The notes under the pieces: generated by a model
Told to the model about the DNA's origin: nothing
Seen by the model: only the letters and a program-made list of their open reading frames with translations
The model's database searches: none
NCBI RefSeq assembly: GCF_003721515.1
Contig: NZ_RJJD01000004.1
Coordinates: 1 to 64,000, forward strand
Origin: Rufibacter latericius
GTDB lineage: Bacteria > Bacteroidota > Bacteroidia > Cytophagales > Hymenobacteraceae
Direction: 5' to 3'
DNA length: 64,000 nucleotides
Made by a program: the position numbers and the translations under genes
Shown: in pieces, positions 5,456 through 59,220 of the stretch
How positions within the stretch are numbered: the stretch's first letter is position 1
Layout: every line of letters starts with the position of its first letter

Positions 5456-5515
5456 AAGCTTCCGCTTAGGGGCTGTTTCTTTGAAAACAGCCCCTAAGCG
5501 GAAGCTTCTTTTTTG
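5456..5515. repeat. Dispersed palindrome, 23-bp perfect arms, with T tract
   Basis: Arms 5456-5478 and 5485-5507 are exactly complementary, with core TTAGGGGCTGTTT. The loop is CTTTGA. The right arm runs into CTTTTTT, so this copy can act as an intrinsic terminator for the YfhO gene. It is one of the most complete members of the window-wide palindrome family. Confidence 0.9.
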
Positions 5516-5559
5516 CCTTCGGCTATATTGCTCCGGCCTCGTAAACCGTTATAAAGCCT

Positions 5560-6363
5560 ATGCAGAAATCAACCTTCTATATCGCGCAAATGGACTGCGC
5601 CTCCGAGGAGCAGATGGTCAGGATGAAGCTAAGAGGACAGCAAACCGTGAAGCAACTGGCCTTTGACCTGGCTGCCCGGCAAGTAGACATCTGGCATAGC
5701 GGTGAGGTACGGCCTATTTCCTCCGCGCTGTCTACCCTAGGCCTGGGTGCCCGCTTGCTCAACACAGAATACCAGGACAAAGCAGCAACGAAGGAGAAAA
5801 CATCCACCGGAAGCGAGCGGAAGCTGTTGCTCCTGGTGCTTGGCATCAACGCGGCTTTCTTCCTGCTTGAGATCACGACGGGTTTTCTGGCCAAGTCCAT
5901 GGGCTTGATCGCTGATTCGCTGGACATGCTCGCCGATGCCCTGGTCTATGGCCTTAGTCTATGGGCCGTAGGCAGTACCCTTTCGCGACAGAAGAACATT
6001 GCAAAACTAAGCGGTTACTTTCAGTTGGGGTTAGCCGTGTTGGGCTTCGCCGAAGTGGTGCGCCGATTTTTAGGAGCCGAGGCTCTGCCCGATTTCTGGA
6101 CCATGATTGGGGTTTCTGCTTTCGCCCTGATAGGCAATTCTGTTTCTTTGTACCTGCTGCAGAAATCGCAAAGCAAAGGAGCCCACATGAAAGCCAGTAT
6201 GATTTTTACCTCCAACGATGTCATCGCTAACCTGGGTGTGATCCTGGCGGGGGTGCTGGTTTATTTCACCCATTCGGCCCTGCCCGATCTGGTAATTGGT
6301 GTTCTGGTCTTTTTGTTGGTAGCCCGCGGTGCCTTCCGGATTCTGAGTCTGGCTAAATCGTAG
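5560..6363 (+). CDS. Cation transporter, CDF family with N-terminal HMA-like domain
   Basis: A 267-residue inner-membrane protein. Residues 1-70 look like a degenerate heavy-metal-associated ferredoxin fold: MDCASEEQM keeps one Cys of the usual CxxC. A linker follows, then about six membrane helices typical of cation diffusion facilitators. The two transport-site helices carry DSLDMLADA (residues 119-127, acidic residues at 119, 122 and 126) and SNDVIANLG (218-226, with D220 and N224). The classical zinc transporters have HxxxD in one or both, so metal preference may differ (manganese or iron is possible; inference). The long cytoplasmic C-terminal domain of ordinary CDF proteins is absent. 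It probably exports a divalent metal. The PLP-enzyme gene begins 9 bp downstream. Confidence 0.82.
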   Translation: MQKSTFYIAQMDCASEEQMVRMKLRGQQTVKQLAFDLAARQVDIWHSGEVRPISSALSTLGLGARLLNTEYQDKAATKEKTSTGSERKLLLLVLGINAAFFLLEITTGFLAKSMGLIADSLDMLADALVYGLSLWAVGSTLSRQKNIAKLSGYFQLGLAVLGFAEVVRRFLGAEALPDFWTMIGVSAFALIGNSVSLYLLQKSQSKGAHMKASMIFTSNDVIANLGVILAGVLVYFTHSALPDLVIGVLVFLLVARGAFRILSLAKS

Positions 6364-6372
6364 TTTCAACCC

Positions 6373-7353
6373 GTGCCCGAAGTCTCTCCCCTGCAACCGC
6401 TCACTGACCCGCTGCTGACCCAAAAAGGAGTGGCATTGTCTATCCTACGGGAGGATTTGCTACACCCCGGCATTCCTGGCAACAAGTGGCGCAAACTCAA
6501 ATACAACCTGCAAGAGGCCCGGGAGAAAGAATGTGAGACGCTGGTCACCTTCGGAGGGGCTTTCTCTAACCACATTGCCGCCGTTGCTGCTGCCGGGCAG
6601 GAGTTTGGCTTCGCTACCATCGGGTACATCAGGGGCGAGGAGACCTTGCCGCTCAACCCCACGCTGGAACTCGCCACCCGCCACGGCATGCAGCTCCGGT
6701 ATCTCTCCCGCACCGATTATCGCCTCCGGCATGAACCGCATTTTCAGGCCGAAATCCTGAAAAAGGCCCCAAAACCATACTTCCTCCCTGAGGGCGGGAC
6801 TAACCTGCTGGCCGTGAAAGGCTGCACCGAAATCGTGTCTGAATTGACGGAGCCCTGGGATGTCCTCTGCGTAGCAGCCGGAACCGGCGGAACCATGGCC
6901 GGCATGGTAGCAGGCGCGGCTGGCCAGGGAAAGGTAATCGGGTTTCCGGCCTTAAAAGGAGGGGCGTTTCTGCAGAAAGAGGTAACAGAACTGGTGCAGG
7001 AATACAGTGGTCAAACCTACCAGAACTGGGCACTCCAGACCGAGTACCATTTCGGCGGCTACGCCAGACACACCCCGGAGCTGCTTTCGTTTATCCAGCA
7101 ATTTTACCAAAGCCATGGTATTCTGCTGGACCCGGTGTACACCGGCAAGATGCTCTATGGCGTGTTTGACCTGATCAGGCAAGACTATTTTCCCAAAGGC
7201 ACTCGGTTGGTGGCGGTGCATACGGGCGGCCAGCAAGGATGGACCGGGTACGCTCAGCGGTATGGGTTGGCTTGGCCATTACCTGAGTTGGTAAAGTCGG
7301 ATGTCGCTTTTGGGTTTACTTTTCTGAAAACATGCCAAAATCGCAGGAGGTAA
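6373..7353 (+). CDS. PLP-dependent 1-aminocyclopropane-1-carboxylate deaminase / D-cysteine desulfhydrase family
   Basis: A 326-residue fold-type II PLP enzyme starting at GTG 6373, 9 bp after the transporter. GNKWRKLKYN (residues 36-45) contains the likely PLP-lysine, TFGGAFSNHIAA (59-70) is the substrate/carboxylate loop, and AAGTGGTMAGMVAG is the glycine-rich phosphate cup. VHTGGQQG near residues 291-298 is the usual end of the catalytic domain. Members deaminate ACC or D-cysteine; which one this does cannot be decided from sequence. The last 20 residues come from a copy of the dispersed palindrome (7305-7344), so the C-terminal tail is probably a recent addition and not catalytic. Confidence 0.85.
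   Translation: MPEVSPLQPLTDPLLTQKGVALSILREDLLHPGIPGNKWRKLKYNLQEAREKECETLVTFGGAFSNHIAAVAAAGQEFGFATIGYIRGEETLPLNPTLELATRHGMQLRYLSRTDYRLRHEPHFQAEILKKAPKPYFLPEGGTNLLAVKGCTEIVSELTEPWDVLCVAAGTGGTMAGMVAGAAGQGKVIGFPALKGGAFLQKEVTELVQEYSGQTYQNWALQTEYHFGGYARHTPELLSFIQQFYQSHGILLDPVYTGKMLYGVFDLIRQDYFPKGTRLVAVHTGGQQGWTGYAQRYGLAWPLPELVKSDVAFGFTFLKTCQNRRR
7305..7344. repeat. Dispersed palindrome overlapping the 3' end of a gene
   Basis: Left arm CGCTTTTGGGTTTACTTTTC, right arm GAAAACATGCCAAAATCGC, imperfectly complementary, with the family core degraded on the left side. It lies inside the coding frame of the PLP enzyme and encodes its last residues. Confidence 0.65.
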
Positions 7354-7401
7354 CTTTCGGTGCGGTTTTCGCATATAGCAACCTACATCAATTCTTCATC
7401 C

Positions 7402-8040
7402 ATGCGATTCCTATTTTTGCTCCGTAAGTTTATCCCGTGGCTCCTGATTTTTGTGGTGGCAGCCTTGGCTTGGCGCTTTTTGCTGATGCCGGTCAAAAAC
7501 TTTCTGAACCCGGAGAAGGAACCGACCGTGGAAGTGACCCACAACACCATTCTCACCAGGATTGAGGAAATAGGCAAACTGGAACTGGTGCGTTACAACT
7601 TCAAAGATGTGGTGGAATACAAAAAGGAGGTTTCGCAGTTCTTGCCCGATTCTAAAGTAGCCTTGATTGTAGGGGGCGAGGCGGTGGGCTGTATTGACCT
7701 GCAGAAACTACAGGAAAGCGATTTGCAGTTCATCGGGGATTCTGTGTTGCACGTGAGTTTGCCCGCGCCGGAAATCTGCTACTACAGAATAGACCACACG
7801 CAGTCCAAGGTTTTCGGGAAGGAGAACACCTATTTCAAGGATGCTGAGTTGGTGGACGAAGGCTACAAGTACGCCGAGGAAAACGTGAAACAGGCGGCGC
7901 TCAACAGCGGGATTCTACAACAGACATCCGTTAACGCAGAAAAGGTGTTGAAACCGATGCTGGAGAACATGACCGGGCGCAAGGTGTACCTGATGCCCCG
8001 TCAAACCATGTCCCCACCGCCGGTGCCGAAAAAACGATAG
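7402..8040 (+). CDS. DUF4230 domain protein, membrane-anchored
   Basis: A 212-residue protein, taking ATG 7402 as start; the upstream in-frame GTG at 7360 would put a poor 14-residue extension before the hydrophobic helix. One N-terminal membrane helix (about residues 5-27) is followed by a soluble domain that begins VEVTHNTILTRIEEIGKLEL, the usual opening of DUF4230, and continues through VALIVGGEAVGCIDL and DSVLHVSLPAPEI. Function is unknown. The anchor suggests the domain sits in the periplasm. A proline-rich tail (MSPPPVPKKR) ends it. No partner is evident: the next gene is on the other strand. Confidence 0.85.
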   Translation: MRFLFLLRKFIPWLLIFVVAALAWRFLLMPVKNFLNPEKEPTVEVTHNTILTRIEEIGKLELVRYNFKDVVEYKKEVSQFLPDSKVALIVGGEAVGCIDLQKLQESDLQFIGDSVLHVSLPAPEICYYRIDHTQSKVFGKENTYFKDAELVDEGYKYAEENVKQAALNSGILQQTSVNAEKVLKPMLENMTGRKVYLMPRQTMSPPPVPKKR

Positions 8041-8139
8041 AAGTAAAAGTCCTGGCAATAAATGCAGTTTCAAGCCAAGGAGCTTTTGGGGCGTTTTTCG
8101 GGAAATAGCTTTGAATCAGGTCCCGGGCGGGCACATCGT

Positions 8140-9657: not shown

Positions 9658-9658
9658 T

Positions 9659-9697
9659 CGTTTTAGGTATCTTTTCTGTGAAACAGGCCCGAAACGG
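9659..9697. repeat. Dispersed palindrome at transporter 3' end
   Basis: Left arm CGTTTTAGGTATCTTTTC and right arm GAAACAGGCCCGAAACG form an imperfect stem. The right side matches the family core well. Confidence 0.6.
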
Positions 9698-12956: not shown

Positions 12957-12995
12957 CCGTTTAGGGCTCATTTTCTGAAAGCAGGGCTAAATCGG
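12957..12995. repeat. Dispersed palindrome after VOC gene
   Basis: CCGTTTAGGGCTCATTTTC pairs imperfectly with GAAAGCAGGGCTAAATCGG. The left arm matches the family core TTTAGGGC. Confidence 0.65.
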
Positions 12996-18942: not shown

Positions 18943-19000
18943 AAGTCCCTTGGGTATTTGGCCTGTTTCCATTAAAACACGCCAAATACCCAGAGGACTT
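18943..19000. repeat. Dispersed palindrome, 26-bp arms
   Basis: The left arm starts AAGTCCCTTGGGTATTTGG and the right arm ends CCAAATACCCAGAGGACTT. Three mismatches, two of them C/T pairs that RNA would tolerate. Core TTTGGCCTGTTT. Confidence 0.85.
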
Positions 19001-19035: not shown

Positions 19036-19072
19036 CGTTTTCAGCCTTTAATTCAGAAAACAGGCTGAAAGC
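19036..19072. repeat. Dispersed palindrome beside hydrolase stop
   Basis: CGTTTTCAGCCTTTAATTC pairs with GAAAACAGGCTGAAAGC. It lies 9 bp beyond the stop codon of the minus-strand glycoside hydrolase. Confidence 0.75.
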
Positions 19073-19081
19073 AGCTAGTCT

Positions 19082-20407: not shown

Positions 20408-20640
20408 TAAATGAAAGGTTTTGGGTGGCAGGTATAGGTGGGTTTGTGGGTGCTGAAATTATCAATTTTTGCTTTACAGTAAAGAGGTGAGAAATAAAAT
20501 ACTTCTGAAAAAGGGAAAAGGCATTCTCCAGCTTTAGCTTGTTCTTTTTAGGGCCTAAGGTATGCTTTCTGATTTGGGATTGTTTTTGGGAAAGGAGCAG
20601 GAAAGCAGAACTCCTGGTTTTATGGATAGGAAATCTCTTC

Positions 20641-20680
20641 AAAAAAGAAAACCCGCAGTATGTGCGGGTTTTCTTTTTTG
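20641..20680 (-). terminator. Terminator after DSRCP lipoprotein gene
   Basis: A perfect 17-bp stem, AAAAAAGAAAACCCGCA against TGCGGGTTTTCTTTTTT, with loop GTATG. On the minus strand the 3' arm ends in a T tract. Confidence 0.9.
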
Positions 20681-20696
20681 AAGAACAGACGTGAAC

Positions 20697-22166: not shown

Positions 22167-22307
22167 AAAGGTAGAAGTTGCCGCGCGTACTGCCTAATTA
22201 GCAGCTGTTTCTGCCTTTAATCGTGTGTCGTGCCCAGGAAAACCGCTCCTCTGATTCACGTGCAGGCTATTTTTGACCGCCTTTTCCGAAAACAATGTTA
22301 AAAATGC

Positions 22308-22392: not shown

Positions 22393-24864
22393 ATGTTTAC
22401 TTTTAAAGAGATTGCCCAGGTGACGGGAGGCATGTTGGTACAATGCAACGCAACCTACCCCGTACAGCACCTGCTCACCGATAGCCGTAAAATTGCCAAT
22501 GCCGTTTCCTCGGTGTTTTTCGCCATTCGGGGCGAATTCCATGACGGGCACCAATACATTCCGGAGCTCTACGCGGCCGGTGTGCGGCAGTTTGTGGTGG
22601 AAGACGCCTCTGGAGTCATGGACTTGTCCGCCCTACCTGAAGCCAATGTGCTGCTGGTAAGTGACAGCATTCAGGCCATGCAGCGGCTGGCCGCTTATCA
22701 CCGCCGCAAGTTCTCTATTCCGGTCATCGGTGTCACGGGCAGCAACGGCAAAACCATTGTGAAAGAGTGGCTGGCGCAGTTATTAAGCGTTTCTGAGCGG
22801 GTAGTGAAAAGCCCCCGAAGCTATAATTCCCAGATTGGCGTGCCGCTCTCGGTGTGGCAAATCAATGAAAGCCATACCATCGGCGTTTTCGAGGCCGGAA
22901 TCTCCAAACCAGGTGAAATGGAGCATCTGGCCAGCGTGCTGCAACCTACCATCGGTGTGTTCACCAACCTTGGTCCGGCGCATGACGAAGGTTTCTCTTC
23001 GTCCGCCCAAAAGCTGGAAGAAAAGCTGAAGCTCTTTGACCACGTCACCCAGCTTATTTACTGTGCCGACCAGAAAACCGTGGCCGAGGCAACCCAAGCC
23101 ACAGGCTTGCCCGGTTTTGCCTGGAGCACCCATGAACATCCCTCGGCGCAGGTGCAGCTCAAAGTGCTGGAAATGCACCACGGCAAAACCAAAATCCGGT
23201 TCCGGTTCGATGGCAAAGGCCAGGACTTCACCCTGCCTTTCGCCGATGAGGCGTCGCTGGAAAATGCGCTGCATTGCCTGGCCGTCTTGCTGTACTTGGG
23301 CGTAAAACCCGAAGAATTACCTAGTCGCTTCGAGCGCCTGCATCCCGTGGCCATGCGTCTGGAGCGCAAAGAAGCTATCAACGGCTGCTACGTCATTGAC
23401 GATACCTACAATAATGATCTGGCTGGTCTACGCATCGCGCTGGACGTGCTGGGACAGCAAGCCCGCCGGGGCCGGAAAACCCTGATTGTCTCTGATCTGC
23501 TGGAAGCTGGGGTGGAAGAAACCACCCTCTACCAACAGGTGGCGCAGGAAATCACCTCCCGGGGCGTGGACCGCGTCATCGGGATTGGCGACATCATCAC
23601 CCGACACCAGGACCTGTTCCCCGCCGGCAGCGAGTTCTACCTCGGCACCGATTCTTTTCTGGGGCAACTCCGCTCCGAGACGTTCCGGCAGGAAACCATC
23701 CTGGTGAAAGGCGCGCGGGTGTTCCAGTTCGAGAAGATTGTGGCCGCCCTGCAGCAGCAAATACACGGCACCAAATTGGAAGTGAACCTGGATGCCTTGG
23801 TGCACAACCTCAACTACTACCGCACCAAAGTACCGGCTCAGGTCAAGATCATGGTCATGGTGAAAGCCTTTGCCTATGGGGCAGGTGCCTACGAGATTGC
23901 CAACCTGCTCCAGTTCCACCGGGTAGATTACCTGGCCGTGGCGTACGCCGATGAAGGCATTGCCCTGCGGGAGCACGGCATCACGTTGCCCATCATGGTC
24001 ATGAACCCCAGCCCAGACAGCTTCCTGAAAATGCGGCAGTACAGCCTGGAACCCGAAATTTATTCCCCAGACCTGCTGCATCGGTTTTTAGACTACTTTC
24101 CTAAAAAGAGCTCCAAAACGCCCCGCATTCACCTCAAGCTGGATACCGGCATGCACCGCCTCGGCTTTAGCCCTTCTGAACTGGATGAAGCTTTGGAGGT
24201 GCTGGACCATGTGCCCCACGTGCGGGTGCAAAGCGTTTTCAGTCACCTGGCTGGCGCCGATGAAGCGGTATACAATGATTTTTCCCACGCCCAGATTGCA
24301 CAGTTCAAACAAATGGCCACGCGGGTAGAGCAGGCGCTGGGCTATGCTGTGACAAAACACATTCTCAACTCAGCGGGCATCGTGCGCTTTGGCGAAGAAG
24401 CTGCCTTTGACATGGTACGCTTAGGTATTGGTTTGTACGGCGTAGAATCTTCGGGGCAGGAGCAGGGCAATCTGCAGACCGTGGGCCAGTTGAAAACCAC
24501 CGTTTCGCAGGTGAAATCTATAAAAGCGGGCGAAACCGTAGGCTACAGTCGCCGTGGCATCGCTGATACTGATAAACAAACCGCTACCATCGCCATTGGC
24601 TATGCTGATGGCTATGACCGCCGGTTCGGGAACGGGGTAGGTGAGGTGCTCATCAACGGGCAACGAGCTCCCATCATCGGGAACGTGTGCATGGACATGT
24701 GCATGGTAGACGTGACGGGTCTTGACGTACAGGCCGGCGATGAAGTGCTGGTATTTGGCGAAGGGCTGCCGCTGACTGAACTGGCTTCCCGCATCGGTAC
24801 CATTCCGTATGAACTGCTCACCAACGTCAGCACGCGGGTGAAGCGGGTATTCTTTAATGAATAG
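22393..24864 (+). CDS. Bifunctional UDP-MurNAc-tripeptide:D-Ala-D-Ala ligase / alanine racemase
   Basis: 823 residues, a fusion of MurF and Alr typical of Bacteroidota. Residues 1 to about 450 are MurF, with the ATP-binding loop GVTGSNGKT at 113-121 and the later ligase motif YVIDDTYNNDLAGL. Residues about 456-823 are alanine racemase, with the PLP-lysine near residue 491 (MVMVKAFAYGAG), the second catalytic Tyr in VGYSRRGI (about 718), GNVCMDMCMVDVTGLD and the terminal YELLTNVSTRVKRVF. It makes D-alanine from L-alanine and adds D-Ala-D-Ala to the peptidoglycan precursor in the cytoplasm. In the P-loop the residue after GKT is Ile rather than the usual Thr. It is transcribed alone. Confidence 0.95.
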   Translation: MFTFKEIAQVTGGMLVQCNATYPVQHLLTDSRKIANAVSSVFFAIRGEFHDGHQYIPELYAAGVRQFVVEDASGVMDLSALPEANVLLVSDSIQAMQRLAAYHRRKFSIPVIGVTGSNGKTIVKEWLAQLLSVSERVVKSPRSYNSQIGVPLSVWQINESHTIGVFEAGISKPGEMEHLASVLQPTIGVFTNLGPAHDEGFSSSAQKLEEKLKLFDHVTQLIYCADQKTVAEATQATGLPGFAWSTHEHPSAQVQLKVLEMHHGKTKIRFRFDGKGQDFTLPFADEASLENALHCLAVLLYLGVKPEELPSRFERLHPVAMRLERKEAINGCYVIDDTYNNDLAGLRIALDVLGQQARRGRKTLIVSDLLEAGVEETTLYQQVAQEITSRGVDRVIGIGDIITRHQDLFPAGSEFYLGTDSFLGQLRSETFRQETILVKGARVFQFEKIVAALQQQIHGTKLEVNLDALVHNLNYYRTKVPAQVKIMVMVKAFAYGAGAYEIANLLQFHRVDYLAVAYADEGIALREHGITLPIMVMNPSPDSFLKMRQYSLEPEIYSPDLLHRFLDYFPKKSSKTPRIHLKLDTGMHRLGFSPSELDEALEVLDHVPHVRVQSVFSHLAGADEAVYNDFSHAQIAQFKQMATRVEQALGYAVTKHILNSAGIVRFGEEAAFDMVRLGIGLYGVESSGQEQGNLQTVGQLKTTVSQVKSIKAGETVGYSRRGIADTDKQTATIAIGYADGYDRRFGNGVGEVLINGQRAPIIGNVCMDMCMVDVTGLDVQAGDEVLVFGEGLPLTELASRIGTIPYELLTNVSTRVKRVFFNE

Positions 24865-24865
24865 C

Positions 24866-24900
24866 GTTTAGGGGCTGTTTTTATAAAAACGGACCTAAAC
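24866..24900. repeat. Dispersed palindrome after murF-alr
   Basis: GTTTAGGGGCTGTTTT against AAAAACGGACCTAAAC, starting 2 bp after the stop codon. Confidence 0.8.
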
Positions 24901-24971
24901 TACTTTGTCGGCTTTGATCCGAAGTTGATAAAAGAACTCACAGGTGAAGGCTAGGTTGGTAACCAGAAACA

Positions 24972-25000
24972 AAAACGCCACTGAAGTTCAGTGGCGTTTT
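24972..25000. terminator. Bidirectional terminator
   Basis: A perfect 13-bp stem, AAAACGCCACTGA against TCAGTGGCGTTTT, with loop AGT. It sits between the convergent murF-alr and the 39-residue minus-strand gene and can serve both. Confidence 0.85.
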
Positions 25001-25186: not shown

Positions 25187-25936
25187 TTAGTTGCGGCTAT
25201 TCAACTTAGAGAGCAGGCGCAGTATTTCAATATACAGCCAGATCAAGGTGACAGCTAGACCGAAGGCAGCGTACCACTCCATGTTTTTAGGAGCGCCGTA
25301 TGCCACGCCTTGTTCAATGGTGTCAAAATCCATAATCAGGTTCATGGCCGCAATGATCACCACCAGCACACTGAAGATAATGCCCGCTGTGCCGCTGCTA
25401 TGGATCAAAGCCATCTCAACGCCAAAGAACTGCAGAATGAAGCCCAGCATGTAGTAGCAGAAAATCCCGAACGTGGCCGTCATGACAATGGACTTGAACC
25501 GTTCTGTGGCTCTGATCACGCGGGTGCTGTACAAAAGCAACATGCCGCCGAACACCGTAAAGGTCAACAGCATGGCCTGCGTGGCAATACCTGGGAACTT
25601 CGTCTCCAGAATACCTGAGATTCCGCCCAGGAACAGACCTTGCAACGCGCAGTAAAGAGGCGCAATGTAGGCGGCCCATTCTTTTTTGAAAACAAGCAGG
25701 AACGCCAGGCCCACGCCTACCAACGGAATAGAAACCAGGAACGGCAGCGGCACGCCCATCAGGGCGAACAGGTCCCAGGAGAAAACCGCAAAGACCAGTA
25801 CTATTCCCAGCAGCAAAGCCGACTTGGCCATGGTGCCGTTCAGGGTCATGGTAGGTCCATCAAGGGTCTGAGGAGTCGCTGATTGAAGAAAAGCCTCCTC
25901 TTTAAGAGCAGGGTTGTTAGAACTGAAAAGTGACAT
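25187..25936 (-). CDS. Bax inhibitor-1/YccA family membrane protein
   Basis: 249 residues from ATG 25936. A longer frame to 26053 exists, but its extra 39 residues overlap the upstream promoter zone and do not resemble the family. A soluble N-terminus (SNNPALKEEAFLQSA) is followed by seven hydrophobic segments. Characteristic BI-1 elements are GLFLGGISGILETKFPGI, FGIFCYYMLGFILQFFG and the terminal MDFDTIEQGVAYGAPKNMEWYAAFGLAVTL, with conserved acidic residues of the calcium/proton-gated pore. It may act as a pH-sensitive calcium leak channel like YetJ; the physiological role in bacteria is unclear. It is divergent from feoA. Confidence 0.87.
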   Translation of the reverse strand: MSLFSSNNPALKEEAFLQSATPQTLDGPTMTLNGTMAKSALLLGIVLVFAVFSWDLFALMGVPLPFLVSIPLVGVGLAFLLVFKKEWAAYIAPLYCALQGLFLGGISGILETKFPGIATQAMLLTFTVFGGMLLLYSTRVIRATERFKSIVMTATFGIFCYYMLGFILQFFGVEMALIHSSGTAGIIFSVLVVIIAAMNLIMDFDTIEQGVAYGAPKNMEWYAAFGLAVTLIWLYIEILRLLSKLNSRN

Positions 25937-26069
25937 GTTTTTAGTTGGTTTCACGAAAATTAGGCAAAAATCAGTAGAAATACAAGCAAAAACAATGCAA
26001 GTAATTGATGGTGATGCGAAACTTCGGGTTCTTTTTGGATTCATTAGGAACACCTTGTACCTTGCAACT

Positions 26070-28505: not shown

Positions 28506-28545
28506 CTGTTTTGGGCATGTTTTTAGAAAAACATGCCCAAAACAG
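28506..28545. repeat. Dispersed palindrome, perfect 19-bp arms
   Basis: CTGTTTTGGGCATGTTTTT (28506-28524) and its exact complement (28527-28545), with 2 nt between. The first position is 7 bp after the feoB stop. Core GGGCATGTTTTT is a variant of the common GGGCCTGTTTTC, with matching change on both arms. Confidence 0.9.
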
Positions 28546-28588: not shown

Positions 28589-28666
28589 GGCAGTTCTGCT
28601 GCCGGTATTGTTCATGACTCGCCACTATACTGCAGGTAGTGATTATACAAATTGGATAACGCTTGC

Positions 28667-28702
28667 GGTTTGGGCCTATTTCGCAAAAATGGCCCTGAAA
28701 CC
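28667..28702. repeat. Dispersed palindrome in feoB-rimP gap
   Basis: GGTTTGGGCCTATTT against AAAATGGCCCTGAAACC. The rest of the 28589-28850 interval shows no gene or other structure. Confidence 0.6.
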
Positions 28703-30730: not shown

Positions 30731-30806
30731 AAGGATGGGAGCCGTTTAGGGCCTGTTTTCCGGGAATATGGTCAAAAACGCGTAGTCGCCAAGGCCGCCC
30801 ATCCTT
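30731..30806. repeat. Nested inverted repeat between nusA and infB
   Basis: Outer arms AAGGATGGGAGCC (30731-30743) and GGCCGCCCATCCTT (30793-30806) enclose a dispersed-palindrome half (GTTTAGGGCCTGTTTTCC, 30744-30761) whose partner has decayed to GGTCAAAAACG. No long T tract follows, so read-through into infB is likely. Confidence 0.6.
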
Positions 30807-34216: not shown

Positions 34217-34244
34217 TCTTCAGTTGAACAACAGTTTAGTTTAA

Positions 34245-34290
34245 AATAAAGAAAGCCCCACCTTCTCAGGTGGGGCTTTCTTTATTTTAG
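34245..34290 (+). terminator. Strong terminator after infB
   Basis: A perfect 19-bp stem, AATAAAGAAAGCCCCACCT against AGGTGGGGCTTTCTTTATT, loop TCTC, T-rich 3' flank. It can act in both directions. Confidence 0.92.
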
Positions 34291-34359: not shown

Positions 34360-34572
34360 GGCAGAGACACTCGCAGGACTTCCGGACGCTACGGGGCTTG
34401 GAAGAAGCAGGAATATGTTTGGGGAAGCAATTCACCTGGTTAAAAAGTGCACATTCTGTTTTAAGGTTATTTTCAAGAAAAGAGGCAATAAAGGGTTTGT
34501 TATTCAATTCTGAAGGAAAGGGTAGTATCCCAAAGACCTCGTGGTGTCCATAGGTCTACGGGTGTCTCTGCC
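34360..34572. repeat. Non-coding gap with a spaced GGCAGAGACAC inverted repeat
   Basis: GGCAGAGACACTCGCAGGA at 34360-34378 recurs, inverted and slightly changed, as TACGGGTGTCTCTGCC at 34557-34572. The second copy is joined to a local AGACCT...AGGTCT hairpin (34534-34556). About 180 bp lie between them without a believable gene. It could be the remnant of a small mobile element with inverted ends; no transposase is visible. Confidence 0.4.
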
Positions 34573-34618
34573 ATTCATAACAGACTTCATTTTAGGCTTA
34601 GATTCCGCAAAACGGGCT

Positions 34619-34666
34619 GTAAACAGGAACGCCTCTCCTAAAAGTAGAAGAGGCGTTCCTGTTTAC
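34619..34666. terminator. Long hairpin downstream of basic secreted protein gene
   Basis: Perfect 18-bp arms GTAAACAGGAACGCCTCT and AGAGGCGTTCCTGTTTAC with a 12-nt loop. It lies 22 bp beyond the stop of the minus-strand gene and ends that transcript or stabilises its 3' end. No clear T tract is present on either side. Confidence 0.65.
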
Positions 34667-34687
34667 ATTTGAAGCTATATCTCTGAT

Positions 34688-35116
34688 CTAGAAGATCAGG
34701 AACTTGCGGTTGCGCTTGTTCAGGCTTTGCTGGTACATCTTTCCGTTGGGGTTATCCTGGTCAATGAGGCGCTTTGATTTACGGGTTCTGGTGGCTCTTT
34801 TTGGAGCTGTCTTGTTCTTGTAAGACCCAATGGAGAAAGCACCTTTGCCGGTGTCATATTTGTTGTCAGGCATGGAATAGCGCGGACCCGAGTACATGCC
34901 GCCACTGGTCTTGGCCGAGGCAACGGCTTTCTGGCGGTCCAGCAGCATCTCGCGGTCAACGTTACCAGAAGAGACCTGGCCTTTCCTGATGCCGTCAGGT
35001 CCCCGGCGGGCAGCCTCGCGCTTCGATTTTCTTGGCTTTTGCGCCGATGCCTCAGACGCGTTTGCTCCTAAAAGGATAAGCGCCATGGCAAATGCAACAT
35101 ATCTGAAAAAACTCAT
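34688..35116 (-). CDS. Small basic secreted protein, unknown
   Basis: 142 residues. A cleavable signal peptide (about 1-26) ends ASEASAQ. The mature part is strongly basic and low in complexity (KPRKSKREAARRGPDGIRKG, KRATRTRKSKRLIDQDNPNG) with a central Gly/Tyr/Ser stretch (GGMYSGPRYSMPDNKYDTGKG). It ends LNKRNRKFLIF. I recognise no domain. Similar short basic exported proteins occur in this family of bacteria without assigned function. The charge suggests binding to the acidic cell surface, to polysaccharide or to DNA outside the inner membrane; this is inference. Confidence 0.8.
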   Translation of the reverse strand: MSFFRYVAFAMALILLGANASEASAQKPRKSKREAARRGPDGIRKGQVSSGNVDREMLLDRQKAVASAKTSGGMYSGPRYSMPDNKYDTGKGAFSIGSYKNKTAPKRATRTRKSKRLIDQDNPNGKMYQQSLNKRNRKFLIF

Positions 35117-35307
35117 CTTATAGGTTTGATTGCGAAGAGAAAAGGAAATATGCCGTGTAACGCGAAACGTGGGGGATCTGTTCCAGAGATTAGAACTTAA
35201 ATTTGCGAAAAATTTTATACTTTCCTAAGCTTTTCGGCTAAAAAAGTAGCCATGAAGAGTATTTTTAAAGGGTAGGGGGCAAGCAGAGTAATCTGTGTGG
35301 ATTTCTT

Positions 35308-35315
35308 TATATTTG
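35308..35315 (+). promoter_or_regulatory. -7 promoter element upstream of crotonase gene
   Basis: TATATTTG matches TAnnTTTG exactly and lies 43 bp before the start codon. A second TAAATTTG at 35198-35205 is also on the plus strand. Confidence 0.45.
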
Positions 35316-35357
35316 CGCCTCTTATTTTAAGGGAAACTCACGTTTAGAAGATAGAAC

Positions 35358-36140
35358 ATGGTCCATTACAACAACCTTCTGCTGGAAAACAAAGGCGGCA
35401 TTTTGTTTATAACGGTCAACAGGCCAAACAAAATGAATGCCCTCAACATTGAGACGGTAAAGGAGATAAACACCGCCATGCAGGAAGTGTATGATGACCC
35501 GCAGGTGCGGGGCGTTATCCTGACGGGAAGTGGCGAGAAGGCGTTTGTAGCCGGGGCCGATATCGCTGAGATCGCGGAGCTGAACGAGGTGAACGGGCGC
35601 CGCTTCGCTGAGCGTGGGCAGGAGGTCTTTTCCATGATCGAGGAAAGCCCTAAACCCGTGATTGCGGCCGTAAACGGATTTGCGTTGGGCGGCGGGTGTG
35701 AGTTGGCCATGGCTTGCCACATACGGGTAGCCAGTGAAAACGCCCGCTTCGGCCAGCCTGAGGTGAACCTTGGCATCATCCCCGGTTATGGCGGCACGCA
35801 GCGCCTGACTCAGTTGGTAGGCAAAGGCAAGGCCATGGAACTCATGATGACTGGAGATATGATCACAGCAGCCGAGGCTAAAGAGATTGGTCTGGTCAAC
35901 CACGTGACCTCTCCCGAAGGCCTAATGGACAAATGCCTGGAGATCATGCAGAAGATTGTGGCCAAGGCGCCACTGGCGGTAGGTATGATTGTAGACTGCG
36001 TGAACGCCTGGTATGATAAAGAGGAAAACGGCTACCAGACCGAAGCCAATTCGTTCAGCCGTTGCTGCGGGTCAGAGGACTTCAAAGAAGGAACTTCGGC
36101 GTTTCTGGAGAAACGCAAACCTGCGTTTAAGGGAGAATAG
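35358..36140 (+). CDS. Enoyl-CoA hydratase/isomerase (crotonase) family protein
   Basis: 260 residues, the usual length. The oxyanion-hole elements are KAFVAGADIAEI (61-72) and the turn NGFALGGGCELAMAC (106-120). Both catalytic Glu residues of a hydratase are present, Glu115 in GGGCEL and Glu135 in FGQPEVNLG, followed by IIPGYGGTQRLTQLVG. It probably hydrates short-chain trans-2-enoyl-CoA in beta-oxidation or a related pathway (crotonyl-CoA). It stands alone. The closing sequence SAFLEKRKPAFKGE is family-typical. A long palindrome follows 43 bp after the stop. Confidence 0.92.
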   Translation: MVHYNNLLLENKGGILFITVNRPNKMNALNIETVKEINTAMQEVYDDPQVRGVILTGSGEKAFVAGADIAEIAELNEVNGRRFAERGQEVFSMIEESPKPVIAAVNGFALGGGCELAMACHIRVASENARFGQPEVNLGIIPGYGGTQRLTQLVGKGKAMELMMTGDMITAAEAKEIGLVNHVTSPEGLMDKCLEIMQKIVAKAPLAVGMIVDCVNAWYDKEENGYQTEANSFSRCCGSEDFKEGTSAFLEKRKPAFKGE

Positions 36141-36183
36141 GTCTTAGATCCTGATCCAAGCCAAATAGATACGTAAACATTTG

Positions 36184-36236
36184 CCTGCTCCCGTTTTGGG
36201 TCTGTTTTCACCAAACAGGCCCGAAACGGGAGCAGG
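36184..36236. repeat. Dispersed palindrome, 24-bp arms
   Basis: The left arm starts CCTGCTCCCGTTTTGGG, loop TCACC; the right arm ends CCCGAAACGGGAGCAGG. Two mismatches are both T/C changes that allow G-U pairs in RNA. It lies between the crotonase and flippase genes. Confidence 0.88.
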
Positions 36237-36290
36237 TGTAAATAGGAAAAGGAAGTTTTTCATCACCTCCTTTCCTGCCATTTCCCTGAT

Positions 36291-38266: not shown

Positions 38267-38389
38267 ATTGATTATCTTCGGTTTTTACTATATTTTCGGA
38301 GAAATAGCCTGAAAACGGAAAGTTTTATATCCAAAATACGAAATCTCCGTAGGTAGGCCTTACTATAAGCAACCTTTTTAAGACACACT

Positions 38390-43313: not shown

Positions 43314-43321
43314 GAAAAAGT

Positions 43322-43356
43322 GTTTAGGGCCCGGTTTCTGAAAACAAGGCCCTAAA
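43322..43356. repeat. Dispersed palindrome after envC-like gene
   Basis: GTTTAGGGCCCGGTTT against AAAACAAGGCCCTAAAT, loop CTG. Very close to the family consensus. Confidence 0.85.
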
Positions 43357-43384
43357 TACCTTTCAATTAGATAAAATGATTTGT

Positions 43385-43414: not shown

Positions 43415-43564
43415 TGGCAGCGTAGTCTCAGTTGTTGGTAAGAACACGCACCAACGGCGGCGGCTTTTAGAGAGGCAAACAAATGGAACCGCCAAAGCTT
43501 AGCTTTACGGGAAATACCCTTTACTACCCGCAGAAAACAGCTTCTCCCCAAATGCCTTTACTTA

Positions 43565-43599
43565 TTTTAAGCCTGATTTTCAGAAAACGGCCCTAAAGC
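43565..43599. repeat. Dispersed palindrome before RsmI-like stop
   Basis: TTTTAAGCCTGATTTTC against GAAAACGGCCCTAAAGC. It lies 11 bp beyond the stop of the minus-strand methylase. Confidence 0.7.
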
Positions 43600-43609
43600 A
43601 GCTAAGGTC

Positions 43610-44329
43610 TCAGCGTTTGTAGATCAGGAAGATGGCGGGTTGCTTGTGCAGATCGGGGACTTTTCCTTTCCAGTCGGCGACGCGGAGGGTTTTGATGAAC
43701 TCATTAGAGCCGGTGATGTTGGCCGCGATGCACAGCTTGGTGTCTTTACTCAGGTGCAAAAGCAGATCGTCAATCATCTGTTTGTTGCGGTACGGCGTTT
43801 CCATGAAAATCTGCGTCTGATCCTTTATCGCCATCTCTTTCTCCAACCCTTTCAAAGCTTGAATACGGTCGCGTTTCTCAATAGGCAGATATCCGTGGAA
43901 AGCGAAGGATTGGCCGTTGAACCCCGAAGCCATCAGACCCATAAGAATCGCCGAGGGCCCGACCAGCGGCACTACCTTTACCCCGTGCTGATGCGCCAAT
44001 CGGGCTAATTCCGCTCCTGGATCGGCTACGCCGGGACAGCCCGCCTCTGAGATCACGCCTGCATCTTGGCCTGTTAAAATCGGTTTCAAGGCAGCGGTCA
44101 GTTCAGCATCGGAAGAGTTTTTATCGATGACGGTGATCTGCAGTTCTTCTATGGTTTGGCTGGGCGCGATGGATTTGATGTAGCGGCGCGCAGTGCGGGC
44201 ATTCTCCACCAGAAAGTACTTAAGCTGCGCCGTGACATCGGCTACTTGCCGGCAAATGACCGCTGAGGCGGTGTCCTCGGCCAGAACGGTTGGAATCAGG
44301 AAGAGGGTGCCTTTGGCGGGTGTGCTCAT
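43610..44329 (-). CDS. SAM-dependent methyltransferase, tetrapyrrole methylase / RsmI-like
   Basis: 239 residues. It opens GTLFLIPTVLAEDTASAV, a variant of the RsmI start LxxVPTPIGN, and continues with the family motifs VISEAGCPGVADPGAELARLAHQHG, VVPLVGPSAILMGLMASGFNGQSFAFHGYLP and FMETPYRNKQMIDDLL. RsmI 2'-O-methylates C1402 of 16S rRNA. This shorter Bacteroidota form lacks the RsmI C-terminal extension and differs at the N-terminus, so the rRNA target is probable but not sure. It stands alone between intergenic repeats. Confidence 0.85.
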   Translation of the reverse strand: MSTPAKGTLFLIPTVLAEDTASAVICRQVADVTAQLKYFLVENARTARRYIKSIAPSQTIEELQITVIDKNSSDAELTAALKPILTGQDAGVISEAGCPGVADPGAELARLAHQHGVKVVPLVGPSAILMGLMASGFNGQSFAFHGYLPIEKRDRIQALKGLEKEMAIKDQTQIFMETPYRNKQMIDDLLLHLSKDTKLCIAANITGSNEFIKTLRVADWKGKVPDLHKQPAIFLIYKR

Positions 44330-44556
44330 GTTTCTTCGGTGTTTTATCTAAAAGCGGCTTAAAACAGGTGGCGCAGCTTTTCCCTGTTATCATCTGGGTT
44401 AATCCCCATTTATAATCTGGGTTATTTCCCTTTGTCCTCCTGCTTCTTCCTCTTTGGTCATCCTGGAAGAATCTTGTGGGCGAACTAGGTAGACCTTGGC
44501 TCAGGCACTATTTTCGTTTTGAGTTCAGAATTCTCAAAATGGCCTGAAAGCAGCCT

Positions 44557-45349: not shown

Positions 45350-45390
45350 TCTGTTTCTGGCTTGTTTTACAGAAAACAGGCCCATTTCGT
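45350..45390. repeat. Dispersed palindrome overlapping a gene end
   Basis: CTGTTTCTGGCTTGTTTT pairs imperfectly with AGAAAACAGGCCCATTTCG. It covers the last codons and stop of the minus-strand membrane protein, which ends KWACFL. Confidence 0.75.
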
Positions 45391-45945: not shown

Positions 45946-45966
45946 AGACAATGCAGCCTGGCGCTG

Positions 45967-46003
45967 GTTTCAGGGCTGGTTTTCAGAAAAGGGGCCGTAA
46001 ACG
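45967..46003. repeat. Dispersed palindrome after pdxJ
   Basis: GTTTCAGGGCTGGTTTTC against GAAAAGGGGCCGTAAACG, 12 bp beyond the pdxJ stop (minus strand). Confidence 0.75.
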
Positions 46004-47837: not shown

Positions 47838-47884
47838 CCGTTTCTGTTTGGAGCTTGTTTTCTCTAAAACAGGGCTGAAACGGA
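47838..47884. repeat. Dispersed palindrome after cvpA
   Basis: Outer ends CCGTTTC and GAAACGG pair, inner GAGCTTGTTTT and AAAACAGGGCT pair, with extra bases on the left side. Confidence 0.75.
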
Positions 47885-47935: not shown

Positions 47936-47981
47936 TTCCTGCTTTAGGCCTGTTTTGACAAGAACGGGCCTAAAGCAGGAA
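47936..47981. repeat. Dispersed palindrome upstream of pabA/trpG
   Basis: TTCCTGCTTTAGGCCTGTT against AACGGGCCTAAAGCAGGAA, one T/C mismatch. Two family copies lie within 150 bp here, with only 51 bp between them. Confidence 0.87.
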
Positions 47982-56294: not shown

Positions 56295-56324
56295 TTGGAA
56301 CAGAATTTGATAAAGATAAAAGCG

Positions 56325-57011: not shown

Positions 57012-57030
57012 ACAAACTAAGTAACTTACA

Positions 57031-57642
57031 ATGAACAAACTGAAATCTCTGTTAGTAGCCGCTTTTTTACTCGTAAGTGTGGCTTCTTTTGCACAGACAG
57101 GAACCGTTAAAATTGGTTATACCAACGCCAATTACATCATCAGCCAATTGCCTGAAAGCCGCCAGATTGAGTCAGATCTGAAAGCCCACAGCAGCCAATT
57201 GGAGAAAGAGCTTCAGAACAAATACAAAACCTATCAGGAAAAAGTAGAGGTCTACAAAAAAGGCGCCCCTACCATGACCGATGTGGTGAGAGCTGACAGA
57301 GAGAAAGAGTTGACTACTCTGCAAGCCTCTATTGAAGAGTTTCAGCGTAACGCCGATGCTTCTTTGCAGAAAAAAGAGCAAGCTGCCCTTGAGCCAGTAA
57401 TGAACAAAATCCAGAAGTCTATTGACAAAGTGGCTAAAGAGAACGGATTCACCCACATCTTTACCGCCGAAGCTTTGTTGTATGGCCCAGAAGATGGAAA
57501 TGGTTTTACTGACCTGGTTCTGAAAGATCTTGGTGTAACTCCAGCTCCTAAAGGCTCACCAGCTGCTTCAGCTGCTAGCCCAGGTGCCACTGCTCCTAAG
57601 CCAGCCGTACAAAACGCTGCCCCTGTTAAAAAGAAGAAATAA
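57031..57642 (+). CDS. OmpH/Skp family periplasmic chaperone (second copy)
   Basis: 203 residues. The signal peptide ends ASFAQ (about 22). KIGYTNANYIISQLPESRQI opens the Skp domain; the coiled coil (about 45-120) contains KAHSSQLEKELQNKYKTYQE. The end of the fold is GFTHIFTAEALLYGPEDGN. The tail APKPAVQNAAPVKKKK resembles that of the first copy. The gene starts 19 bp after the first copy. A terminator follows. Confidence 0.93.
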   Translation: MNKLKSLLVAAFLLVSVASFAQTGTVKIGYTNANYIISQLPESRQIESDLKAHSSQLEKELQNKYKTYQEKVEVYKKGAPTMTDVVRADREKELTTLQASIEEFQRNADASLQKKEQAALEPVMNKIQKSIDKVAKENGFTHIFTAEALLYGPEDGNGFTDLVLKDLGVTPAPKGSPAASAASPGATAPKPAVQNAAPVKKKK

Positions 57643-57663
57643 GGAGTATCCCTTAGAATATAT

Positions 57664-57702
57664 AAGAGCCGGTGACGATAATCGTTACCGGCTCTTTATT
57701 TT
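57664..57702 (+). terminator. Terminator of the bamA-skp operon
   Basis: A 16-bp stem, AAGAGCCGGTGACGAT against ATCGTTACCGGCTCTT with one G-U pair, followed by TATTTTTG. A half copy of the dispersed palindrome (GAAAACAGGCCTAAAGC) follows at 57716-57733. Confidence 0.9.
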
Positions 57703-57735
57703 TGTGCTATATTTTAGAAAACAGGCCTAAAGCGC

Positions 57736-58809
57736 ATGCAATTACCAGACGGCAGAGAAGACGACTTTGATGAAATAGCCAACCCTGACTCTGATGAGGA
57801 GTTGTATGAACACCACCGCATTCAGGTAGACAAAGGACAGGCGCTTCTCCGGTTAGATAAGTTCCTGATGGATCGCCTGCCTAACGTGACCCGGAACAAA
57901 TTGCAGGAAGCCATCAAAGCTGAATCTGTTAGGATTAACGGCAAACCTACCAAGGCCAGCTACAAAGTAAAGCCTCTTGATGTGATTACCGTCACGCTGG
58001 CTAATCCGCCCAGAGACACTGATATCATTCCTGAGGATATTCCTCTTAACATCGTGTATGAAGATGAGGAATTGATGATGATCAATAAACCAGCAGGTAT
58101 GGTGGTGCACCCAGCCTATAACAACTGGTCTGGTACGCTGGTGAACGGATTGGTGTATTACTTGCAGAACCTCCCTACCTCCAGAAATGGAGAGATACGA
58201 CCTGGACTCGTGCACCGCATTGACAAAGATACCTCGGGGCTGTTGGTGATTGCTAAAACCGACCTAGCCATGGCGCATCTTGCCAGGCAATTCTATGATC
58301 ACTCCATTGAACGTACCTATTATGCTATTGTATGGGGAGTACCAGCGCAGGCCAAAGGAACTATCGTAGGTCATATAGGACGAAGTGCGAAAGACCGGAA
58401 AGTCATGGCAGTTTATCCCGATGGTGAATTCGGGAAACATGCCATCACCCATTATGAGGTGTTGGAGAGTTTCACTTACTGTAGCTTGATCAAGTGCAAC
58501 CTGGAGACCGGACGCACACACCAGATCAGGGCGCATATGAAGTACCTGGGGCATCCGCTGTTCAATGATGCTACCTACGGAGGGGATAAGATCCTGAAAG
58601 GCCAACAGACCGGTTCTTACAAGGCCTTTGTCCAGAATACATTTGACGTGCTGCCCCGGCAAGCTTTACATGCCAAATCCTTGGGGTTTCAGCATCCCAC
58701 CTCCCAAAAGTTTGTTTTCTTTGAATCAGAACTTCCCGCTGATTTTTCGGCTGCTTTGGAAAAATGGCGTCAATACGGTCAAGTACTGCAGAATAGAATT
58801 CAAGCCTAA
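57736..58809 (+). CDS. RluA/RluD family pseudouridine synthase
   Basis: 357 residues. An S4 RNA-binding domain (about 33-95: LLRLDKFLMDRLPNVTRNKL, VRINGKPTKASYKVKPLDVI) precedes the catalytic domain. The active-site Asp is in LVHRIDKDTSGLLVIAKT (Asp163). ETGRTHQIRAHMKYLGHPLFNDATYGGD is family-typical but shown here only in part (GRTHQIRAHMKYLGHP). It isomerises uridines in 23S rRNA, most probably as RluD. It starts just behind a half palindrome. Confidence 0.94.
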   Translation: MQLPDGREDDFDEIANPDSDEELYEHHRIQVDKGQALLRLDKFLMDRLPNVTRNKLQEAIKAESVRINGKPTKASYKVKPLDVITVTLANPPRDTDIIPEDIPLNIVYEDEELMMINKPAGMVVHPAYNNWSGTLVNGLVYYLQNLPTSRNGEIRPGLVHRIDKDTSGLLVIAKTDLAMAHLARQFYDHSIERTYYAIVWGVPAQAKGTIVGHIGRSAKDRKVMAVYPDGEFGKHAITHYEVLESFTYCSLIKCNLETGRTHQIRAHMKYLGHPLFNDATYGGDKILKGQQTGSYKAFVQNTFDVLPRQALHAKSLGFQHPTSQKFVFFESELPADFSAALEKWRQYGQVLQNRIQA

Positions 58810-59220
58810 ACTTGTATGACAGCTAATAGCATTGGAGGGATTACTTCATAATTACTTCTACTTGTTTGTTTCTGATTATTGGTAGGGTTAATTCAGTTGG
58901 AATACCTTAATGTTGAAGTATTTGGAATAGGTTCATTTTAGGCCTACTTTCCGAAAACCTTGCCGAAAGCAAATGGAAGCTTTGCTCAAGTGCATGAACA
59001 GCTTACTTGAACTAAGTTCTTAAGTCAAACGAAAGAAGTGAGGGTGATTATAGAGAAATAATTTGGTTAGGGATAAAAGCTTAATTGCCGGGTTTGATGC
59101 TTTTAGTGGAATGGAAATCCTGGTGGAATGGGATTACATGAGTTTCCTTTCCGGTCTATATCCTGTTCTCTTGGATAAAGCTTTCGATATAACCTGCATT
59201 TTAATTCCTTCCTTGAACAT
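58810..59220. other. Non-coding gap between convergent genes, with a palindrome
   Basis: 411 bp with no believable gene; the one open frame near 59063 runs into the terminator and has no family features. A degraded dispersed palindrome lies at 58935-58970 (CATTTTAGGCCTACTTTC against GAAAACCTTGCCGAAAGC). Confidence 0.6.

What the first reader, a model, noticed from the sequence alone, without database searches (positions are those of the whole stretch)
5456..58970. A window-wide family of intergenic palindromes with shared core and copy-specific, self-complementary outer arms
About 25 sites share a core close to TTTAGGGCCTGTTTTC, a 2-6 nt turn, then its complement. Clear members: 5456-5507, 18943-19000, 24866-24900, 28506-28545, 36184-36236, 43322-43356, 47936-47981; degraded or half members: 8085, 9659, 12957, 19036, 22308, 28667, 30744, 38290, 43565, 44517, 45350, 45967, 47838, 57716, 58935. 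The outer arms are different in every complete copy yet still pair (for example CTTCCGC, CTGCTCCCG, CCTGCTTT, CCCTTGGGTATTT), and several mismatches are T/C changes that keep G-U pairs. Covariation of this kind indicates selection on, or repeated regeneration of, the hairpin. Copies sit at gene 3' ends and avoid long operons and the cassette region. Most have no T tract, and at feoB a true terminator follows one, so they are not simply terminators. A REP-like element, mRNA 3' stabiliser or protein binding site are all possible.
Basis: partly seen in the sequence, partly recalled or inferred. Interest (0 to 1): 0.8.

Follow-up and report, generated by a model that had tools for sequence, protein, structure and literature searches.

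The report
Genus-wide 38-base mirrored DNA signal
Rufibacter bacteria carry roughly three thousand copies of a 38-base mirrored DNA motif, mostly between genes and sometimes inside them, that largely keeps its places from species to species while many species spell it in their own dialect; the pattern fits a protein recognition mark better than a jumping repeat or a simple RNA hairpin.

Summary
The repeat family is real, but it is not mainly a hairpin with copy-specific arms. Density extrapolates to about 3,000 copies per genome. It is present in 16 of 16 genomes of the genus and at background in 188 others of the family. The unit is a rigid 38-bp dyad, GTTTT-N6-GTTTT-N4-AAAAC-N6-AAAAC; its arms almost never occur alone (1 of 208). 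Orthologous gaps are occupied in 211 of 247 cells where the window has a copy, but in 5 of 232 where it has none. Copies evolve in concert within species (z=10.5). Copies inside two conserved genes arose without a 12-13-residue insertion, which argues against transposition. Density around RAYT genes is only background. Compensatory pairing and paired outer arms are real but confined to a minority, mostly at gene 3' ends. Best reading: a genus-specific duplex-DNA recognition site that some transcripts re-use as a hairpin. The binding protein was not identified.

The parts
5456..5507 (.). Perfect dyad (5463-5500) with outer arms and T tract, 23 nt after a stop codon: copy used as a terminator-like hairpin
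   Evidence: score 42.2, 16 of 16 pairs; hairpin and T tract kept in the 5 genomes readable at this locus, window included
36184..36236 (.). Dyad with about 10-bp outer arms; the inner outer-arm bases are conserved while the core differs by species
   Evidence: covariation 0.313 vs 0.157 shuffled, 0 of 500
28506..28545 (.). Perfect dyad just after feoB; a separate terminator-like hairpin follows
47936..47981 (.). Near-perfect dyad with short outer arms and T tract
18943..19000 (.). Dyad (18953-18990) with 10-nt outer arms
43321..43358 (.). Dyad in a convergent gap
   Evidence: score 31.9
24865..24902 (.). Dyad starting at the stop codon of the murF-alr gene
   Evidence: score 34.7; gene named by Pfam; orthologues
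24083..24120 (.).
   Evidence: score 29.9; peptide present in the 15 genus proteins aligned, DNA motif above 16 in 14 of 15; outgroups without a long insertion
22268..22306 (.). Degraded dyad in a divergent gap; other species keep the words without hairpin pairing
   Evidence: score 13.4
9659..9696 (.). Dyad 1 nt after a stop codon
   Evidence: score 37.9
12958..12994 (.). Dyad in a convergent gap
   Evidence: score 29.9
19036..19073 (.). Dyad
   Evidence: score 24.7
8081..8118 (.). Weakly paired dyad in a convergent gap
   Evidence: score 28.1
28666..28702 (.). Second dyad downstream of feoB
   Evidence: score 34.3
30743..30780 (.). Dyad between nusA and infB
   Evidence: score 34.0; present in 13 of 13 other genomes with a readable orthologous gap
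38280..38317 (.). Dyad 13 nt after a stop codon, positionally conserved
   Evidence: score 28.3
43563..43600 (.). Dyad in a convergent gap
   Evidence: score 40.6
45352..45389 (.). Dyad overlapping the end of a minus-strand gene; the stop codon lies in the centre
   Evidence: score 27.1
45966..46003 (.). Dyad between two minus-strand genes, 12 nt after a stop codon
   Evidence: score 33.6; conserved position
47845..47882 (.). Dyad 10 nt after a stop codon
   Evidence: score 37.1
57697..57734 (.). Dyad ending 1 nt before the start codon of the next gene
   Evidence: score 28.4; conserved position
58934..58971 (.). Dyad in a convergent gap
   Evidence: score 24.2
1829..1866 (.). Further dyad, 23 nt before a gene
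   Evidence: score 25.3
25936..25973 (.). Further dyad in a divergent gap
   Evidence: score 24.6
34457..34494 (.). Further dyad in a convergent gap
   Evidence: score 28.1
34588..34625 (.). Further dyad in a convergent gap
   Evidence: score 25.1
44329..44366. Further dyad between two minus-strand genes (ten more sites, scores 13-25, are not listed)
   Evidence: score 27.2

Best explanation
Each copy is a recognition site in double-stranded DNA for a sequence-specific protein of the genus Rufibacter (with Sabulibacter). The site is a rigid 38-bp dyad of four GTTTT/AAAAC quarter-sites whose centres lie 11, 9 and 11 bp apart (about three helical turns), so a dimer of two-headed subunits or a tetramer could read them from one face of the helix. 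The sites were established around the root of the genus; in the coding genes examined this happened without insertion, by substitution in place. They have largely been kept at the same places, mostly between genes, and they co-evolve into species dialects, presumably following the changing specificity of the bound protein. Where a site lies just behind a gene, RNA-level selection has in a minority of copies completed the palindrome and extended it outwards, giving a transcription-terminating or 3'-protecting hairpin; this use is secondary. The most likely job is an architectural or boundary mark bound between transcription units. Shown: anatomy, number, genus restriction, positional conservation, concerted evolution, and in-place origin of the coding copies in two genes. 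Inferred: the time of origin, the protein, its binding and the job.
For: Spaced-dyad counts in 400 kb: GTTTT-N15-AAAAC 52 vs 2.6 background, GTTTT-N26-AAAAC 31 vs 2.6. Rigid centre: 6 bp in 136 of 145 G142 sites, 139 of 145 R. immobilis sites, 208 of 242 own sites. Arms not alone: in G142 1 of 208 arm matches with 3 or fewer mismatches lies outside a dyad (at 4 or fewer, 8 of 257, control 9); in R. immobilis 0-4 of 68-204, control 0-2. Genus restriction: 200-1598 pattern hits in 16 of 16 genus genomes, reversed-pattern control 0-4; 0-5 in the 188 other family genomes. Positional conservation 211/247 vs 5/232. Concerted evolution: same-species identity 0.650 vs 0.632 after permuting species within loci, z=10.5. 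Own-species matrix fits coding copies better than chance, mean rank 4.9 of 15, expected 8, n=42. Coding copies in all three frames: 3, 4, 3 of 10. No long insertion in two genes. A divergent locus keeps the words without pairing.
Against: No binding protein was identified and no binding was measured. About 3,000 sites drifting together is unusual for a binding protein, because selection per site must be weak. A few copies sit in the middle of genes, which a boundary role does not predict. Perfect hairpins with paired outer arms are a real subset, so RNA has a role somewhere. In several genomes, the own one included, copies are degenerate (mean pairwise identity 0.59 in the window). The dialect test in coding copies is not corrected for relatedness, left out 2 of the 16 genomes, and ranks the own genome's matrix 15th, 6th and 4th for its three copies. 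At the nusA-infB gap Rufibacter and Sabulibacter are longer (161-167 nt) than Pontibacter (109-122 nt) and Adhaeribacter (131-152 nt), so insertion at non-coding sites is not excluded.
Confidence: 0.52

Rival explanations
1. DNA uptake (self-recognition) signal: the dyad is what a competence receptor of the genus prefers, and copies accumulate by biased uptake and recombination, as uptake sequences do in Neisseriaceae and Pasteurellaceae.
For: Thousands of copies, species dialects, hairpin use at gene ends, copies in all coding frames and without insertion. Passages of PMC3630211 report thousands of copies, dialects, intragenic copies, inverted pairs linked to terminators and 1294 dyad-symmetric pairs in Simonsiella muelleri. 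A low-GC stretch with a VapE-like domain (L042) lacks the motif. Molecular drive would explain concerted change of thousands of sites more easily than site-by-site selection (inference).
Against: Single arms hardly occur alone. Some long gaps stay empty in every genome read (divergent 35086-35357 gap, 0 of 13 others) and gains are rare (5 of 232). I did not look for competence genes; none of the titles or abstract starts listed reports competence in Rufibacter.
Confidence: 0.22
2. Mobile repeat (REP- or MITE-like) spread by a transposase, with species-specific bursts.
For: High copy number, palindrome, mainly intergenic, near-identical copies in R. immobilis, species-specific consensus. The genus has Y1/RAYT-like genes, and 8 of 15 such loci have copies on both sides of the gene. 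Gap lengths at nusA-infB would allow an insertion.
Against: Coding copies without insertion; near-fixed positions across the genus; density at RAYT loci is about background, 31 copies in 48.8 kb against 48-57 per 100 kb elsewhere; no correlation with RAYT number; no Y1_Tnp hit in G142; RAYT loci read here are bordered by other palindromes.
Confidence: 0.1
3. RNA element: a terminator or 3'-end stabilising hairpin is the primary function.
For: Near-perfect copies in R. immobilis are 33 codirectional, 18 convergent, 2 divergent, 1 inside; 45 of the 55 perfect middle stems lie at 3' ends or in convergent gaps; T tract kept at the 5463 locus; covariation at 36184.
Against: No extra middle-stem pairing in divergent gaps; coding copies; 405 of 720 intergenic copies have 4 or fewer of 8 middle pairs; separate terminator-like hairpins follow at feoB and murF-alr.
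Confidence: 0.1
4. Neutral concerted evolution by conversion or template switching between copies, without function.
For: One-arm homogenisation in R. immobilis (left arm GTTTAGCGGCTCTTTTT, right arm general consensus); species dialects.
Against: Conservation of position and of the T and A words; presence in constrained proteins; 38 bp is short for homologous conversion (general knowledge).
Confidence: 0.06

Closest known systems
DNA uptake sequences (DUS) of Neisseriaceae / USS of Pasteurellaceae
   Same: Thousands of copies, species dialects, inverted arrangement linked to terminators, copies inside genes (PMC3630211, passages only; USS recalled)
   Different: Rigid 38-bp dyad instead of a short word; arms hardly ever single; no receptor or competence shown; mostly outside coding DNA
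Repetitive extragenic palindromes (REP) with RAYT transposases
   Same: Short palindrome, high copy number, mostly intergenic, species-specific (PMC2817692, abstract and outline)
   Different: No association with RAYT genes beyond background density; in-place origin in coding genes; near-fixed positions
Highly iterated palindrome HIP1 of cyanobacteria
   Same: Genome-wide iterated palindrome (start of the abstract of PMC4390886 in a search listing)
   Different: HIP1 is 8 bp and discussed with methyltransferases; here 38 bp with a six-base centre; methyltransferases not examined
Intrinsic (Rho-independent) terminators
   Same: A minority of copies form long stems, some with a T tract
   Different: Most copies lack perfect stems and many lie in divergent gaps or inside genes

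Membership tests
REP / RAYT system | RAYT gene flanked by two copies of its own REP | tested here: not met
   Of 15 RAYT-like loci, 2 have no copy within about 1.5 kb and 8 have copies on both sides, but the density (31 in 48.8 kb) is about background; the own gene and L129 and L134 are bordered by other, closer palindromes
REP / RAYT system | Copy number goes with the RAYT | tested here: not met
   Spearman 0.25, p=0.36 over 16 genomes; G142 has 617 pattern hits and no Y1_Tnp hit
REP / RAYT system | Copies arise by insertion | tested here: not met
   Coding copies in a BatA-domain protein and in murF-alr align with outgroup proteins without a 12-13-residue insertion; non-coding sites not settled, gap lengths differ
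DNA uptake sequence | Thousands of copies in the genome | tested here: met
   57 per 100 kb in a 400-kb own-genome sample that contains the 82 training sites, 48 per 100 kb in 14 other genus genomes; about 3,000 per genome by extrapolation
DNA uptake sequence | Species dialects | tested here: met
   z=10.5; examples
DNA uptake sequence | Short word that also occurs singly | tested here: not met
   1 of 208 arm matches outside dyads
DNA uptake sequence | Promotes uptake through a receptor | not testable with these tools
   Needs transformation assays
Intrinsic terminator | GC-rich stem followed by a T tract | tested here: not met
   True for single copies such as 5456-5507, not for the family: 405 of 720 intergenic copies have at most 4 of 8 middle pairs
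Known structured RNA family (Rfam) | Match above gathering score | tested here: not met
   0 matches in the window
HIP1-like iterated palindrome | Octamer with a cognate methyltransferase | not tested
   Length differs; methyltransferases were not searched
Protein-bound dyad site | Rigid spacing and two-fold symmetry with invariant words | tested here: met
Protein-bound dyad site | Specific binding protein | not testable with these tools
   No candidate was identified

The most novel reading that the evidence does not exclude
A bacterial genus installed a long dyadic DNA mark at roughly three thousand places, including by rewriting codons inside conserved genes, and then evolved it in concert into species dialects. 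This would be a new class of chromosome-marking or self-recognition system in Bacteroidota, with an unknown reader protein.
Probability: 0.45. Interest if true: 0.88.

Novelty: new variant of a known kind. Interest (0 to 1): 0.76.

Why it matters
It is a natural experiment in how thousands of dispersed DNA sites change together. Sixteen genomes share most of the positions but not the spelling, so the reader protein and the cause of concerted change (co-evolution, uptake drive or conversion) can be tested directly. It also warns that palindrome families which look like REPs or terminators can be duplex-DNA signals that some transcripts merely re-use as hairpins.

Tried and rejected
RAYT/REP: one Y1_Tnp hit in the own genome, interrupted by an in-frame stop and bordered by a different repeat. 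0-6 hits per genus genome, 15 of 16 with at least one. A first look with a loose pattern found copies in 9 of 15 RAYT loci; the more sensitive matrix found them in 13 of 15, at about background density. Terminator or RNA element as primary function: rejected for most copies. Known RNA family: none. Single short word: arms hardly occur alone. Same motif elsewhere in the order: 0-14 hits in 236 of the 237 genomes outside the genus, mostly at or below the control; the exception, G709, has 54 vs 10 with sequences that look unrelated. A stricter pattern over 395 phylum genomes was useless, because it also gave 0 in the own genome. Two exact consensus patterns in viral contigs: 0 hits, a weak negative. 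K-mer over-representation showed no strict word. Dyad counts in pooled Pontibacter and Hymenobacter loci only counted orthologous copies and say nothing; small samples of five other family genomes gave weak dyads only, the largest AAAAC-N6-GTTTT 9 vs 2.1 in G010, and the G127 sample was partly masked. One search's protein alignment mixed strands and was replaced, where the second motif place aligns loosely. One search found no outgroup murF-alr in the loci held, so fetched it. In one search three of the 42 rows labelled Alr are other sites that passed my filter; relatedness was not corrected. Gene calls come from a simple caller of my own, so 'inside' counts and gap lengths are approximate. 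Literature: listings of 6-15 papers each; of 34 papers naming Rufibacter the 15 listed show no repeat study in title or abstract start.


Full report
What was checked. The window lies on contig C19 of a 5.67-Mb genome. The nearest named NusA proteins are eight Rufibacter records and Sabulibacter ruber at 96-99% identity. Seventeen window copies were aligned and a covariance model was built. It found the window copies, which it contains by construction, and filled its 150-match limit in the own genome. To avoid circularity I took twenty 20-kb stretches of the own genome, kept 90 distinct sites at E<0.01, and trained a weight matrix on the 82 of 38 nt. At threshold 12 it gives 57 sites per 100 kb in that own sample (training sites included), 48 per 100 kb in regions of about 72 kb from 14 other genus genomes (one only 37 kb), and 1.36 per 100 kb in 587 kb of Pontibacter DNA from 28 orthologous loci. 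Samples of 40-100 kb from five other family genomes gave 1-4 hits each. Extrapolation gives about 3,000 copies per genome.

Anatomy. Gapped-dyad counts show GTTTT-N15-AAAAC and GTTTT-N26-AAAAC far above background, so each arm is two GTTTT words 11 bp apart. The sharpest genome sampled (G142) has the consensus CGTTTTTGGCCTGTTTTCyrGAAAACAGGCCAAAAACG. The centre is nearly always 6 bp, and arms practically never occur without their partner.

Distribution. The pattern GTTT-N9-TTT-N(4-6)-AAA-N9-AAAC, which catches only part of the copies, hits 200-1598 times in each of 16 genus genomes (control 0-4) and 0-5 times in 188 other family genomes. In the order, 236 of 237 genomes outside the genus have 0-14 hits with mostly similar or higher controls. 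The covariance model matched all nine Rufibacter/Sabulibacter loci and none of 71 loci from other genera at E of 0.02 or less.

Position. In G142, gaps of 60 nt or more carry a site in 22 of 31 convergent, 66 of 121 codirectional and 16 of 35 divergent cases. For window gaps with a readable orthologue, other genomes carry a site in 211 of 247 cells where the window has one and in 5 of 232 where it has none. Short codirectional gaps stay empty in nearly every genome. Among the longest motif-free stretches is the cytochrome oxidase operon in both R. immobilis and the own genome.

Coding copies. A BatA-domain protein (Pfam) is found in 16 of 16 genus genomes. The motif scores at its first place in 16 of 16 and at its second in 15 of 16, SYSU D00344 being the exception. 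Seven outgroup proteins of full length align across the first place without an insertion of the motif's length; an Adhaeribacter and a Hymenobacter protein match in length there, the Pontibacter ones differ by about one residue. The second place aligns loosely. In murF-alr the motif codes for RFLDYFP... (QFLDYFP... in two) in all 15 genus proteins aligned. Two Adhaeribacter proteins have the same length there, a third is one residue shorter, Pontibacter and Hymenobacter two. In G144 the murF-alr copy falls below the search threshold.

Dialects. R. immobilis uses GTTTAGGGGCTG and GTTTAGCGGCTC arms, G144 GGCTTCATTTC..GAAATGAGCC, G138 and G142 TTTTTGGCCTG..GAGGCCAAAAA. Over 194 elements at 28 loci in 15 genomes, copies of one species at different loci are more alike than after permuting species within loci (0.650 vs 0.632, z=10.5). 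The mean effect is small because several species have degenerate copies; within-species identity runs from 0.55 (G145) to 0.84 (G138). Coding copies fit their own species' matrix better than expected (mean rank 4.9 of 15, n=42), without correction for relatedness and with exceptions such as the own genome.

Hairpins. Among 720 intergenic copies chosen by sequence alone, perfect middle stems number 55 against 17.9 expected from mismatched partners. Outer runs of 4 or more pairs occur in 51% vs 7% of copies with nearly perfect middles, 24% vs 5.5% of intermediate ones and 6% vs 4% of the rest. Divergent gaps show no middle-stem excess, though their outer arms pair somewhat more than expected (9.7% vs 3.1%, n=93). 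At the 36184 locus 14 genomes show strong covariation. At the divergent 22268 locus there is none, while the T and A words are invariant. Across eight single-copy loci, full-length pairing exceeds shuffled partners clearly at 36140-36290 (z=6.9), moderately at three (z=2.6-3.1) and not at the other four. In R. immobilis the near-perfect copies cluster behind genes and in convergent gaps.

RAYT genes. Around 15 RAYT-like loci the motif is present in 13 and on both sides in 8, but at about background density (31 copies in 48.8 kb), and its number does not follow the RAYT count (Spearman 0.25, p=0.36).

Interpretation. Rigid dyad, indivisible unit, in-place origin in two coding genes, fixed positions and dialects together point to recognition of duplex DNA by a protein, with hairpin use as a later addition at gene ends. 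An uptake signal shares most of these traits (PMC3630211, passages) and is the main rival. A mobile REP is disfavoured. The protein, the binding and the job are inferences. The placing of the words on one face of the helix is my reading of the consensus, not a measurement.

Noticed in passing
L002:1321-2018; L129, L134: RAYT-like genes of the genus are bordered by other palindromic repeats (for example CAAGTTACCGCTTCGCTCAAACTTG in the own genome and GCTGGCGCGAGCTTGCAGCTCGTGTCCGCACGC in L129 and L134); the own-genome copy is interrupted by an in-frame stop.
   Followed up: partly
L042:5462-20000: A 14.5-kb stretch of GC 0.42 without any copy of the motif, with a VapE-like-domain protein: probably an acquired island.
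   Followed up: partly
L139 (R. immobilis C1 27.4-44.6 kb) and L024:4343-13719: The cytochrome c oxidase operon is among the longest motif-free stretches in both genomes sampled.
   Followed up: partly
window 45352-45389: The stop codon of a minus-strand gene lies in the centre of the dyad in the 12 genomes shown; the coding left arm varies less than the right arm.
   Followed up: no
R. immobilis L138-L152: Two sub-forms: a near-perfect palindrome with GTTTAGGGGCT arms mostly behind genes (54), and an asymmetric form (78) with left arm GTTTAGCGGCTCTTTTT and a general right arm, oriented with the gene more often than against it (27 vs 11 in codirectional gaps).
   Followed up: partly
L053 and L062, nusA-infB gap: Adhaeribacter has TTATTTCCGGAAAATTACCGAA-like sequence where Rufibacter has the dyad; it may be a forerunner or chance.
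   Followed up: no
G709 (same order): 54 hits of the loose pattern against 10 in the control, with a different TTTTGGGC-type repeat; possibly an unrelated family.
   Followed up: no
window 20636-20684, 24972-25000, 34242-34289, 34618-34667, 59215-59265: Long hairpins without the core, by eye ordinary A/T-flanked bidirectional terminators.
   Followed up: no
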